A DNA stretch of 64,000 nucleotides from Thermoleophilaceae bacterium (lineage in GTDB: Bacteria; Actinomycetota; Thermoleophilia; Solirubrobacterales; Thermoleophilaceae): contig JBBDYQ010000012.1 of the NCBI GenBank assembly GCA_040901445.1, positions 15,234-79,233 on the forward strand, written 5' to 3'. Of this stretch, positions 22,997 through 26,783 are shown in pieces (the stretch's first letter is position 1; the number at the start of each line of letters is the position of its first letter). The notes beneath the pieces were generated by a model. That model did not search any database. It had not been told where the DNA came from and saw only the letters and a program-made list of their open reading frames with translations. The position numbers and the translations under genes are program-made.

Positions 22997-23755
22997 TCAG
23001 ACCGGGTTCGGCACGTCGATGAACACGTGCTCGACGCCGAAGCGCTCGGCCACGAGCTCGCCCACGCGGCGGATGCCGAGCGTCTCGGTGGCGTAGTGGC
23101 CGGCGGCGATGAAGTGCACGCCGGCCTCTCGCGCGTCGGCCATCACGTGCTCGGCCGGCTCGCCGGTGAGGAACGCATCCAGGCCGGCCGCTGCGGCCTC
23201 CGACACGCTCGACGCGCCCGCGCCCGACACCACGCCGATGCTGTGCACGACCTCGGGACCGGCGTCGAACACGAGCGGCTCCTGACCGAAGACCTTGCCG
23301 CAGCGGGCCACGAGCTCGGCCGCGCCGATCCCCTCCGCCGAGCGGCCGACGAAGCCGACGGAGCGGTCGCGCGCCTTCCCGAACGGCTCGGCTCGCTCGA
23401 ACCCGAGCGCCTGGCAGATGAGCGCGTTGTTGCCCACCTCGGGATGGGCGTCGAGCGGAAGGTGGTAGGCGGCCAGCGCGATGCCGGCGCCGAACAGCGC
23501 TTCGAGCCGGGCCTTCATCTGCGGCGACAGCGCCCGCGGGTGGAAGTCCCAGAACAGGCCGTGATGTGTCAGGAGCAGGTCCGCGCCGGCCTCGGCGGCG
23601 CGGCGGAACAGCTCGAGCTGGGCCGAGACTCCGGTGGCCACGCGCCAGGTTTCCGCCGCGCCCGGCACCTGAAGTCCGTTCGGGCCGTAGTCATCCCAGG
23701 TGGAGGGCTCGAGCAGCTCGTCGAGAAAGGTCACGATGTCGGTGGTCGCGGTCAT
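22997..23755 (-). CDS. Nif3-like dinuclear metal protein (YbgI/GTP cyclohydrolase I type 2 family)
   Basis: 252 residues. Metal-binding His clusters typical of the NIF3 fold: LLLTHHGLFWDF, YHLPLDAHPEVGN and, near the C-terminus, HFIAAGHYATE. The C-terminal VGELVAERFGVEHVFIDVPNPV is also family-like. ATG 23755 is preferred over the in-frame ATG 12 codons upstream because alignment to the family begins at TDIVTFLDELLEP. Biochemical role is not firmly known for this family. Divergent from the ECF sigma gene. Confidence 0.85.
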   Translation of the reverse strand: MTATTDIVTFLDELLEPSTWDDYGPNGLQVPGAAETWRVATGVSAQLELFRRAAEAGADLLLTHHGLFWDFHPRALSPQMKARLEALFGAGIALAAYHLPLDAHPEVGNNALICQALGFERAEPFGKARDRSVGFVGRSAEGIGAAELVARCGKVFGQEPLVFDAGPEVVHSIGVVSGAGASSVSEAAAAGLDAFLTGEPAEHVMADAREAGVHFIAAGHYATETLGIRRVGELVAERFGVEHVFIDVPNPV

Positions 23756-23847
23756 GGTTGGATTCTGCAAGTTGGGGAACTCAGGTACCATCTACCACTC
23801 ACGTCAGCGCTGCTGTCGGTAGGGGAAGTCACGAGGGATCGTCTGCA

Positions 23848-25368
23848 ATGAGTGTGATCGCGAGGGCGACGGACGCCGGCGACCGCGAACTGGTCGCGGC
23901 GGTCCGTGACGGGGACGACGGGGCGTTCGAGGAGCTGTACCGGCGCTACAACCGGCGTGTGGCCGGCTACGTCTGCCGCATGGTGGGCGATCCCGACCGC
24001 GCCGAGGACGTCACTCAGGAGGCCTTCTTCTCCGCCCTGCGCCGCCTGCGCCGCACCGACTCCGAGATCGTCTTCAAGCCCTGGATCTTCGAGATCGCGA
24101 AGAACGCCTCGATCGATCACTTCCGGCGCACCAGCCGCGCCGAGGAGGTCTCGATCAACCCCGACGACGGCGGCCTGCGCCCGGCCGACCACCTGCGCCT
24201 CGTAGGCGGCGGCCCTGCCCCCGAGGTGGCGTATGAGGGCAAGGAGCGCATGGACCACCTGAAGGGCGCGTTCGACGAGCTTTCCGACAGCCACTCGCGC
24301 ATCCTGGTGCTGCGCGAGCTCGAGGGGCTCTCCTACCGCGAGATCGGCGAGCGCATGGAGCTCACCCGGCCCGCCGTCGAGAGCACGCTGTTCCGCGCCC
24401 GCCGGCGGCTCAACGAGGAGTACGCCGAACTGGACACCGGCGCCCGCTGCGTGGCCGTCTGTGCGGCCATCGCCCGCCTCGCCGAGGGCATCGAGTCTGC
24501 TCGCGACCGCCGGCGCGTCGGGCGCCACGCGGCGCGCTGCTCGGGCTGTCGCCGCCAGGCACGCGAGCTCGGGGTGTCCGTCGAGACGCCGGTGCGCACC
24601 CGCGTCGCGGGGCTGCTGCCCATCCCGGTGCTCGCACGGCGCCGCCGCGATGCAGCGCACGACGGCAGCGCGGGCGCGGCGGCCGGCGGCTACACGTCGA
24701 GCGTGCACCAGGTGGCCGGCACCTGGGCCCCGGCCATCGTCACCACCGGGGCGGCCGAGGGCACCGCCCACGCATGGGGGAAGGCCGCGGCCATAGTGGC
24801 CACGCTCGCCCTCGCGGGCGGCGGAGCCGCGATCCAGGAGCGCGTGGTCAATGCCGAGCGCGGCACCGAGACCGAGGAGGTGGCGCCCGCCGGCGACGGC
24901 GGCGCCCGCGACGGCGGCGACCCCGCTCGCGGTGGTCCGGGTGCCCCCGCTGGGCCGCGCGGCCAGCGCGACGGCTCGGGCGGCACCGGTGGTGGCGGCA
25001 CCCGTGCCGGCAACCTGCTTCCGGACGTGCCGCGCGTGAGCCCCTCGCCGGGTTCCGCGCCCGCTGTGACCCCACCCGCTTTCGGGCCGCCCGCCGTCGC
25101 CCCGCCGGGCGCCGGACCGTTCCCCGCGCCGCCCGCGCGCCGTGATGTGACAGGGATCACCGAGGAGATCACCGGGCCTTCGCCGGCCCGCCCCGACCAG
25201 GCGCTCGGAGACCTCGGCTCCACGACCCTTGAAGGCGCCACCGGCGTCGTGCCGTTGCTTCCGCCCGTCACGCCGCCGGAGCAGATAGACGTCCCGCCGC
25301 CCCCCCAGGGATCGGTCAATCCCCCGGCGCCGCCGGGCTCGCCTGAGATCACGCTCCCCGGGGGCTAA
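23848..25368 (+). CDS. ECF sigma factor fused to ZAS zinc motif, membrane span and Pro-rich tail
   Basis: 506 residues. Sigma region 2 (about residues 20-95, with RAEDVTQEAFFSALRRLR and FEIAKNASIDHFRR) and region 4 (about 135-192, LSYREIGERMELTRPAVESTLFRARRRL) form a complete ECF sigma. Directly after comes Cys201-x25-His227-x3-Cys231-x2-Cys234, the exact spacing of the ZAS anti-sigma zinc motif known from RsrA. One hydrophobic span follows (311-329), then ~175 residues rich in Gly/Pro, presumably outside the cell. This looks like a sigma factor tethered to, and possibly inhibited by, its own anti-sigma domain (inference). Confidence 0.88.
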   Translation: MSVIARATDAGDRELVAAVRDGDDGAFEELYRRYNRRVAGYVCRMVGDPDRAEDVTQEAFFSALRRLRRTDSEIVFKPWIFEIAKNASIDHFRRTSRAEEVSINPDDGGLRPADHLRLVGGGPAPEVAYEGKERMDHLKGAFDELSDSHSRILVLRELEGLSYREIGERMELTRPAVESTLFRARRRLNEEYAELDTGARCVAVCAAIARLAEGIESARDRRRVGRHAARCSGCRRQARELGVSVETPVRTRVAGLLPIPVLARRRRDAAHDGSAGAAAGGYTSSVHQVAGTWAPAIVTTGAAEGTAHAWGKAAAIVATLALAGGGAAIQERVVNAERGTETEEVAPAGDGGARDGGDPARGGPGAPAGPRGQRDGSGGTGGGGTRAGNLLPDVPRVSPSPGSAPAVTPPAFGPPAVAPPGAGPFPAPPARRDVTGITEEITGPSPARPDQALGDLGSTTLEGATGVVPLLPPVTPPEQIDVPPPPQGSVNPPAPPGSPEITLPGG

Positions 25369-25380
25369 TCTCCAGACCAC

Positions 25381-25638
25381 ATGGCCGAGCACGCCACGGG
25401 CTCCCTGCGGGAGGACACGTTCCTCGAGTCCCTGATGGACACGAGCCTGTACTCGATGGGCGCGTTCTTCTCCGATGAGCACCCCAACCTCGTGGACGAG
25501 GTGATCGCGCAGAGCGTGGCCATCGAGGAACAGGGACTGCGCGGGTACGCCGGCGCGCACGAGCTGTCGCTGGAGGAATGCTTCCAGACGCTCCTCACCG
25601 GGCTGGCCGTCCGCTACTACAAGTCGGTCGTGGGATGA
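25381..25638 (+). CDS. Small conserved-looking protein of unknown function (85 aa)
   Basis: 85 residues, acidic, predicted helical, with no membrane span: MAEHATGSLREDTFLESLMD at the start and CFQTLLTGLAVRYYKSVVG at the end. It starts 12 bases after the sigma gene, and its stop overlaps the next start (ATGA), so it is likely co-transcribed with the sigma factor and the dehydrogenase. No family recognised. Confidence 0.65.
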   Translation: MAEHATGSLREDTFLESLMDTSLYSMGAFFSDEHPNLVDEVIAQSVAIEEQGLRGYAGAHELSLEECFQTLLTGLAVRYYKSVVG

Positions 25639-26783
25639 GGGGCGCCTGGCCGGCGACCGTCGCGCTGCTCACCGTGGTCGGCGGCTGGGCGGCGCTCGGC
25701 GCCGAGACGTCCGAGTCCCAGTCGAGCTCGCTGCGGCTCGTCCGCGTGGGCACGTTCGACTCGCCCACCTTCGTCACGGCGCCGCCCGGCGATCGCAACC
25801 GCGTCTTCGTGGTCGAGCAGGGCGGCACGATCCGCGTGGTCCGCAACGGGCGGATCCTGCGACGCGCCTTCCTCGACATCCGCCGCGACGTGAGCTCGGG
25901 CGGCGAGCGCGGCCTGCTGTCGATGGCGTTCGCACCCGACTACGAGCGCAGCCGCCGCTTCTACGTGTACTTCACGGACCGCAGCGGGCACACGCGAGTC
26001 CAGGAGTTCCTGCGCTCGCGGCGCAGCGCAGACCGCGCGGACCGCCGCTCTCGGCGCCAGGTGCTGTTCCAGCGCCAGCCCTTCCCCAACCACAACGGTG
26101 GGCAGCTCCAGTTCGGCCCCGACCGCCTCCTCTACGTCGGCATGGGTGACGGCGGCAGCGGCGGCGACCCCCAGGGCAACGGGCAGGATCTCGGCACCTT
26201 CCTGGGCAAGGTGCTGCGCATCGACCCGCGCCGCCGTGGCGGGCGGCGCTACACCGTTCCGCGCAGCAACCCGTTCCGCGGGCGCCGGGGAGCGCGGCCG
26301 GAGATCTACGCATACGGCCTGCGCAATCCCTGGCGCTTCTCGTTCGACCGGCGGACCGGCGCCCTCACGCTCGCCGACGTGGGTCAGAGCGCGGTCGAGG
26401 AGGTCAACTACCTGCGTGAGGGACGCGCCCGCGGCGCCAACTTCGGCTGGAACGTGTTCGAGGGGCGCCGGCGCTTCACCGCGGGGAGCGCACCCGGGCA
26501 CGTGCGGCCGGTGCTTCAGCGCCTGCACACGGAGGGCGCCTGCTCCATCACGGGCGGCTACGTCGTGCGCGACCGCGCGCTGCGCGCGCTCTACGGACGC
26601 TACGTGTACGGCGACTTCTGCGAGCCCCGGATCCGCTCGGCGCTGTTGCGCAGCGGCCGCGCCCGCGGCGACCGCGCCACCGGCCTGCGCGTGGAGGGCA
26701 TCTCCTCGTTCGGGGAGGACGCGCTCGGGCGCGTGTACGTGGCGTCGCTCGACGGCCCGGTCCACCGTCTTGCCGCACGCTGA
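25635..26783 (+). CDS. PQQ-dependent sugar (aldose) dehydrogenase-type beta-propeller protein
   Basis: 382 residues, exported: ATG 25635 gives a signal sequence (MRGAWPATVALLTVVGGWAA). The soluble glucose-dehydrogenase fold is indicated by DSPTFVTAPPGDRNRVFVVEQGG, the active-site region PFPNHNGGQLQFGPDRLLYVGMGDGG (catalytic-type His), GKVLRIDPRR, YAYGLRNPWRFSFDR and GANFGWNVFEG. Six blades are expected. The natural substrate is unknown; PQQ synthesis genes are not in the window. Confidence 0.88.
   Translation: MRGAWPATVALLTVVGGWAALGAETSESQSSSLRLVRVGTFDSPTFVTAPPGDRNRVFVVEQGGTIRVVRNGRILRRAFLDIRRDVSSGGERGLLSMAFAPDYERSRRFYVYFTDRSGHTRVQEFLRSRRSADRADRRSRRQVLFQRQPFPNHNGGQLQFGPDRLLYVGMGDGGSGGDPQGNGQDLGTFLGKVLRIDPRRRGGRRYTVPRSNPFRGRRGARPEIYAYGLRNPWRFSFDRRTGALTLADVGQSAVEEVNYLREGRARGANFGWNVFEGRRRFTAGSAPGHVRPVLQRLHTEGACSITGGYVVRDRALRALYGRYVYGDFCEPRIRSALLRSGRARGDRATGLRVEGISSFGEDALGRVYVASLDGPVHRLAAR

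What the first reader, a model, noticed from the sequence alone, without database searches (positions are those of the whole stretch)
23848..25368. Sigma factor fused to its own zinc anti-sigma motif and a membrane anchor
The ECF sigma domains are followed by Cys-x25-His-x3-Cys-x2-Cys (201, 227, 231, 234), identical in spacing to the redox-sensing ZAS site of RsrA, then a single membrane span and an extracytoplasmic Gly/Pro-rich region. Normally sigma and anti-sigma are separate proteins. A fused version implies cis-inhibition and perhaps release by proteolysis or oxidation.
Basis: partly seen in the sequence, partly recalled or inferred. Interest (0 to 1): 0.7.

Follow-up and report, generated by a model that had tools for sequence, protein, structure and literature searches.

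The report
Self-inhibited sigma factor with zinc anti-sigma domain
This gene encodes a transcription-switching sigma factor that carries its own zinc-dependent inhibitor and probably a membrane anchor in one protein chain; the architecture is genuine and conserved, but proteins of this kind are already described in actinobacteria (groups ECF48, ECF52 and ECF53).

Summary
Window 23848-25368 (+) encodes a 506-aa ECF sigma factor followed directly by C201-x25-H227-x3-C231-x2-C234, invariant in 30 aligned Solirubrobacterales homologues. The extension is a zinc anti-sigma (ZAS) domain: 23 of 30 homologues match zf-HC2, the only meaningful PDB profile hits are RslA, RsiW and ChrR, and AlphaFold places the helices as in RsrA. 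No neighbour looks like an anti-sigma factor. The membrane span is only marginally hydrophobic, though its position is conserved.

Cis-inhibition with release by proteolysis fits, and is already proposed for ECF48/52/53. The redox part is not supported: RsiW has almost the same motif yet is not redox-regulated, C-to-H spacing varies among homologues, and RsrA's redox-tuning residues are absent. The same genome has six such fusions among 34 sigma-70 region-2 matches.

Not previously noted, as far as I could search: the sigma gene sits between DUF34/NIF3 and an order-restricted 85-aa orphan gene, often with overlapping or nearly overlapping ends. The orphan persists beside NIF3 where the sigma gene is missing.

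Verdict: a sound new member of a known kind.

The parts
23848..25368 (+). ECF sigma factor with C-terminal ZAS domain, probable membrane segment and disordered tail (506 aa)
23935..24138 (+). sigma region 2 (residues 30-97)
   Evidence: Pfam PF04542 E 6.5e-17; AF2 pLDDT about 86-96 over most of it
24271..24411 (+). sigma region 4 (residues 142-188)
   Evidence: Pfam PF08281 E 1.1e-11
24442..24567 (+). ZAS three-helix segment (residues 199-240): helices 199-212, 218-228, 232-240; ligands C201 (24448-24450), H227 (24526-24528), C231 (24538-24540), C234 (24547-24549)
   Evidence: invariant ligands; zf-HC2 in 23/30 homologues; PDB profile hits RslA/RsiW/ChrR; AF2 pLDDT 91-97
24595..24645 (+). conserved hydrophobic/basic element (residues 250-266, around 'RVAGLLPIPVLARRR'), candidate anti-sigma helix 4 or membrane-proximal segment
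   Evidence: conserved [KR]-[IV]-A-x-x-L-P-x-P motif in orthologues; not modelled with confidence
24778..24834 (+). probable single membrane-spanning segment (residues 311-329), marginal hydrophobicity
24835..25365 (+). low-complexity Pro/Gly/Ala-rich, Cys-free C-terminal tail; no Pfam domain
25381..25638 (+). 85-aa conserved orphan protein, 12 nt downstream; candidate operon partner
25635..26783 (+). glucose/sorbosone dehydrogenase-like protein; the start at ATG 25635 (overlapping the orphan's stop) is inferred and gives a signal-peptide-like N-terminus
   Evidence: PF07995 E 1e-38 on the longer ORF; sequence
22997..23791 (-). divergent DUF34/NIF3 gene, conserved upstream neighbour; not an anti-sigma factor
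   Evidence: PF01784 E 2e-59; a relative found in 27 of 34 homologous loci

Best explanation
A membrane-tethered, self-inhibited ECF sigma factor. The ZAS domain, joined to the last sigma4 helix by a one- to two-residue break, folds back on sigma2/sigma4 and blocks RNA polymerase or promoter binding. A C-terminal hydrophobic segment holds the protein at the membrane with a disordered Pro/Gly-rich tail outside. An envelope signal triggers cleavage outside or near the membrane, a site-2 (M50) protease cuts the Ala/Gly-rich segment, and degradation of the ZAS stub frees the sigma domain. Shown here: domain order, invariant putative zinc ligands, ZAS homology, predicted ZAS helices, no anti-sigma-like neighbour. 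Inferred: zinc binding, cis-inhibition, membrane topology, proteolysis and the signal.
For: Sigma domains score well above Pfam cut-offs. The four ligands are invariant in 30 homologues. zf-HC2 is matched by 23/30, best E 1e-7. The PDB profile search returns RslA, RsiW and ChrR, all zinc anti-sigmas, as its first four hits, each weak on its own (E 0.07-0.6). AF2 helices 199-212, 218-228 and 232-240 (pLDDT 91-97) put C201 near the start of helix I and H227 at the end of helix II, as in RsrA. The modelled sigma2-sigma4 arrangement is nearer to anti-sigma-bound SigE and AlgU (rmsd 7.5-8.4 over 141-161 residues) than to RNAP-bound sigmas (about 18-26 A). No anti-sigma-like neighbour. M50 proteases are present. 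For SCO4117 (ECF52), a strain keeping only the sigma domain has a milder defect than the full deletion and activates SCO4117 expression (PMC5826349).
Against: The membrane segment is marginal (dG about +2 kcal/mol, parameters recalled from memory). Model pTM is only 0.44-0.52, so docking of ZAS on the sigma domains is not established. A fourth anti-sigma helix is not modelled. M50 proteases occur in all 14 control genomes, so their presence is weak evidence. I found no experiment on this subgroup.
Confidence: 0.6

Rival explanations
1. Redox switch like RsrA: disulfide formation between C201 and C231/C234 expels zinc and releases the sigma domain from its own ZAS.
For: Same CHCC ligands and spacing as RsrA C11/H37/C41/C44; an N-terminal cysteine is needed for RsrA sensing (PMC4960319).
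Against: RsiW has CHCC with one residue more between C and H and is redox-insensitive, being controlled by proteolysis (PMC5358783). RsrA determinants E39/E40/L45/E46 are A229/R230/R235/R236 here, with R235 invariant and R236 nearly so. C-to-H spacing varies 24-28 in orthologues. About half of membrane-bound class I anti-sigmas carry the motif, possibly in a structural role (PMC7406223).
Confidence: 0.12
2. The protein is soluble: the Ala/Gly-rich segment is not a membrane span, and the ZAS plus disordered tail form a cytoplasmic regulatory extension changed by a ligand, a partner (for example the 85-aa product) or phosphorylation.
For: Weak hydrophobicity of 311-329 and of its counterparts; low AF2 confidence there; conserved neighbouring small gene.
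Against: A hydrophobic stretch recurs at nearly the same distance after the ZAS in most homologues, followed by long Pro/Gly/Ala/Ser/Thr-rich tails without cysteine; catalogued relatives are described with a ZAS plus one or two membrane helices.
Confidence: 0.2
3. The ZAS domain is only structural, or a membrane-docking element, and does not inhibit; the sigma factor is controlled mainly at transcription.
For: A -10-like element within an inverted repeat (GAAC-N6-GTTC) precedes the gene in 9 of 32 homologous loci, suggesting transcriptional control there; the zinc site can be structural in membrane anti-sigmas (PMC7406223).
Against: The ligands and the arginines around them are under strong constraint, and the extension follows sigma4 directly, as expected for a fused anti-sigma.
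Confidence: 0.08

Closest known systems
ECF52 sigma factors (SCO4117, Streptomyces coelicolor)
   Same: ECF sigma + zinc finger (PF13490) + membrane segment + proline-rich C-terminal region in one protein; actinobacterial (PMC5826349)
   Different: No carbohydrate-binding module found here or in the homologue tails scanned; this subfamily was found only in one order; different gene neighbourhood
ECF48 and ECF53 sigma factors (Actinobacteria)
   Same: Described as ECF sigma fused to a zinc-finger (likely ZAS) part and one or two membrane helices, extensions up to 400 aa, expected to be released by proteolysis (PMC8999054)
SigW-RsiW (Bacillus subtilis)
   Same: CHCC ZAS motif, single membrane span in the anti-sigma, control by regulated intramembrane proteolysis (PMC5358783)
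   Different: Two separate proteins; C-to-H spacing 26 instead of 25
SigR-RsrA (Streptomyces)
   Same: Identical C-x25-H-x3-C-x2-C spacing and matching placement of the first two helices
   Different: RsrA is a separate redox sensor; its redox-tuning flanking residues are absent here
IutY (Pseudomonas putida, ECF243)
   Same: One protein carrying sigma and membrane anti-sigma parts, cleaved by Prc and RseP (PMC8999054)
   Different: An iron cell-surface-signalling system in a different ECF group

Membership tests
ECF sigma factor | sigma2 and sigma4 domains without sigma3 | tested here: met
   PF04542, PF08281 and PF07638 above cut-offs; all 30 homologues match
Zinc class I anti-sigma domain (ZAS, zf-HC2) | HxxxCxxC plus an upstream Cys/His ligand | tested here: met
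Zinc class I anti-sigma domain (ZAS, zf-HC2) | sequence homology to zf-HC2 and known ZAS proteins | tested here: met
   23/30 homologues match zf-HC2 at E<=0.01, best 1e-7; the window's own copy is below the curated cut-off (16.9 against 22.2 bits); PDB profile hits RslA, RsiW, ChrR, E 0.07-0.6
Zinc class I anti-sigma domain (ZAS, zf-HC2) | helices 1-3 with ligands at the start of helix 1 and end of helix 2, and a fourth helix contacting sigma2 | tested here: inconclusive
   helices 1-3 modelled at pLDDT 91-97; no confident fourth helix
Zinc class I anti-sigma domain (ZAS, zf-HC2) | inhibits the sigma factor and binds zinc | not testable with these tools
   needs biochemistry
RsrA-type redox sensor | CHCC ligand set with x25 spacing | tested here: met
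RsrA-type redox sensor | flanking residues E39, E40, L45, E46 that contribute to redox sensitivity | tested here: not met
   A229, R230, R235, R236 in the window; residues named in PMC5358783
ECF52 | zinc finger, membrane segment and proline-rich extension after the sigma domains | tested here: met
   the membrane segment is marginal
ECF52 | C-terminal carbohydrate-binding module | tested here: not met
   no such Pfam match in the window tail or nine homologue tails
ECF48 / ECF53 | membership by ECF group HMM or phylogeny with reference members | not testable with these tools
Substrate of regulated intramembrane proteolysis | single membrane span and site-2 protease in the cell | tested here: inconclusive
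   marginal span; M50 homologues present

The most novel reading that the evidence does not exclude
The fused sigma factor forms a module with an order-specific 85-aa orphan protein encoded immediately downstream (often overlapping) and, in the window, with a glucose/sorbosone-dehydrogenase-like gene. The orphan product would be a new kind of regulator of self-inhibited sigma factors, for example gating ZAS release or the fate of the freed sigma domain. In Solirubrobacterales, fused sigmas (six in this genome) would then stand in for many separate sigma/anti-sigma pairs.
Probability: 0.15. Interest if true: 0.55.

Novelty: new member of a known kind. Interest (0 to 1): 0.33.

Why it matters
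Fused sigma/anti-sigma proteins turn a two-protein switch into a one-protein receptor-to-promoter pathway, with fixed 1:1 stoichiometry and little room for cross-talk. Only one member of the actinobacterial type (SCO4117) has been studied, as far as I could find. A conserved, order-wide subfamily with fixed neighbours and several paralogues per genome is good material for testing cis-inhibition and for asking how fusions arise and are lost.

Tried and rejected
Redox sensing by analogy to RsrA spacing: rejected as unsupported. The orphan 85-aa gene as a dedicated anti-sigma: unlikely, because it is found in 86 of 151 genomes of the order and sits beside NIF3 in many that lack this sigma gene there. 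ECF-type autoregulatory promoter (GGAAC...CGT): no consistent match upstream of homologues. Single origin of all fusions: neither shown nor rejected (AU p 0.244; the fused label needs 3 changes on the tree). Single-sequence PDB search with the extension gave only chance hits. Profile-to-one-sequence comparison with the genome's separate zf-HC2 anti-sigma was weak (19% probability, 19 columns). Membership in ECF48/53 could not be tested.

Full report
Observation. The reading frame 23848-25368 (+) encodes 506 aa. Its Cys/His positions confirm C201, H227, C231 and C234, i.e. C-x25-H-x3-C-x2-C; C205 is an extra, unconserved cysteine. sigma2 (30-97) and sigma4 (142-188) score far above Pfam cut-offs. 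The ATG start is sensible because homology begins about residue 11-12.

Is it more than chance? Homologues were collected from related genomes and from named GTDB contigs (34 clear homologues, L033-L066, nearly all from records labelled Solirubrobacter, Solirubrobacterales, Solirubrobacteraceae or Thermoleophilaceae). In a 30-sequence alignment all four ligands are invariant, together with G198, R200, R222, R235 and A238. The spacing between C and H is 25 in most, but 24 or 28 in some, and mostly 23 in other fused sigmas of related genomes (the script printed N-2). So identity with RsrA's spacing is true for this protein but is not a fixed property.

What the extension is. zf-HC2 (PF13490) is matched by 23 of 30 isolated extensions (best E 1e-7) and no other family is; the window's own copy is weak (E 0.0072, below the curated cut-off). 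A profile of the extension against all PDB sequences returns, in order, RslA, RsiW and ChrR (two entries), all zinc anti-sigma proteins, then noise; each match is weak alone (E 0.07-0.6). AlphaFold2 with 30 homologues gives helices 199-212, 218-228 and 232-240 at pLDDT 91-97. Subtracting 190 puts the first two on RsrA helices I (11-23) and II (29-39), with C201 near the start of helix I and H227 at the end of helix II, as described for RsrA (PMC4960319). The overall pTM is 0.52 for residues 1-265, so how the ZAS packs on the sigma domains is not established. The modelled sigma2-sigma4 arrangement is closer to anti-sigma-bound SigE and AlgU (7.5-8.4 A over 141-161 residues) than to RNAP-bound sigma factors (about 18-26 A), which is weak support for a closed form.

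Membrane segment and tail. The best hydrophobic segment is residues 311-329 (Kyte-Doolittle 1.53). An approximate insertion free energy (parameters recalled from memory) is +2.07 kcal/mol, against +0.26 for the best span of a neighbouring membrane protein. Similar Ala/Gly-rich segments lie about 60-90 residues after the His in most homologues. I therefore call the span probable, not shown. Small helix-breaking residues would suit an intramembrane protease substrate, but that is inference. A second conserved element, '[KR][IV]A..LP.P', lies at about 250-266; it may be the fourth anti-sigma helix or a membrane-proximal segment. The tails are 54-73% Gly/Ala/Pro/Ser/Thr in the homologues, have no cysteine and carry no credible domain.

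No separate anti-sigma nearby. The neighbours are DUF34/NIF3 (divergent), an AMP-binding enzyme, an aminotransferase, a small protein without a Pfam match, a glucose/sorbosone dehydrogenase and a methyltransferase. A NIF3 relative is found in 27 of 34 homologous loci. A remote anti-sigma cannot be excluded. The genome does contain a separate zf-HC2 protein next to another sigma gene (C14:22099 beside C14:22497), so the two-protein arrangement coexists.

Not an isolated case. Of 34 sigma-70 region-2 matches in this genome, six encode the fused ZAS motif: C12 (this gene), C2:179 kb, C17:65 kb, C4:130 kb, C15:50 kb and C15:174 kb. Of 29 loci taken from related genomes as the best matches, 28 carry the motif after the sigma domains. 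In a tree, the window's group is one well-supported clade (100/100) apart from the larger C-x23-H clade; one origin of all fusions is neither shown nor rejected (p 0.244). At E <= 1e-40 the window's subfamily was found only in this order in a sample of 61 genomes of the class.

A conserved small neighbour. An 85-aa ORF (25381-25638) starts 12 nt after the sigma stop. It lies directly downstream of the sigma gene in about half of the homologous loci that extend that far, often with overlapping or nearly overlapping ends. It has 24 invariant positions in 12 sequences and no Pfam, NCBIfam or PDB relative. It is present once per genome in 86 of 151 genomes of the order and in only 6 of 296 sampled across the phylum, all of this order. 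In many genomes without this sigma gene at the locus it sits directly beside NIF3. So the sigma gene was gained or lost within an older gene pair, and the small protein has a role that does not need the sigma factor. That argues against a dedicated anti-sigma, but not against a regulatory link.

Mechanism. The best-supported model is cis-inhibition by the ZAS domain at the membrane, with release by proteolysis. The redox reading is weaker. RsiW has C3-H30-C34-C37 and stays bound to SigW when oxidised; it is controlled by regulated proteolysis (PMC5358783). The RsrA flanking residues that contribute to redox sensitivity (E39, E40, L45, E46) are A229, R230, R235 and R236 here. A survey found the zinc motif in about half of membrane-bound class I anti-sigmas and suggested a structural role (PMC7406223).

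What is known. A 2022 review describes ECF48, ECF52 and ECF53 of Actinobacteria as sigma factors fused to a zinc-finger anti-sigma-like part with one or two membrane helices, expected to be released by proteolysis; IutY is the experimentally shown example of a fused, cleaved protein (PMC8999054). SCO4117 (ECF52) has been studied genetically (PMC5826349). The present protein lacks the carbohydrate-binding module of ECF52. Assignment to ECF48, ECF53 or another group was not testable. I found no paper on such proteins in Solirubrobacterales or Thermoleophilia within the held library, which lacks most subscription journals.

Noticed in passing
window 25381-25638 (+): 85-aa conserved orphan protein ('LYSIGAYFxDRHPEL...TLxTGLAVRYY'), directly downstream of the sigma gene in many homologous loci and beside NIF3 where the sigma gene is absent; order-restricted, one copy per genome, no known family.
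   Followed up: partly
L033, L034, L040, L044, L049, L054, L056, L059, L063, 48-96 nt upstream of the sigma start: Inverted repeat GAAC-N6-GTTC enclosing a -10-like TACAGT, in 9 of 32 loci and at no other spacing from 0 to 14; absent in the window. Possible operator.
   Followed up: partly
own genome G000:C4:184542-184643 (L001): Open frame with a sigma4-like segment, zf-HC2 and a strong C-terminal hydrophobic span but apparently no sigma2: perhaps a fused sigma that lost its sigma2 domain.
   Followed up: no
window 25578-26783 (+): The glucose/sorbosone dehydrogenase-like ORF probably starts at ATG 25635, overlapping the stop of the 85-aa gene, which gives a signal-peptide-like N-terminus; the sigma, orphan and dehydrogenase genes would form one operon.
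   Followed up: partly
L037 and L041 C-terminal tails: Solirubrobacter homologues have a helical, apolipoprotein/phasin-like stretch near the C-terminus (weak, below cut-off matches) not seen in the window protein.
   Followed up: no
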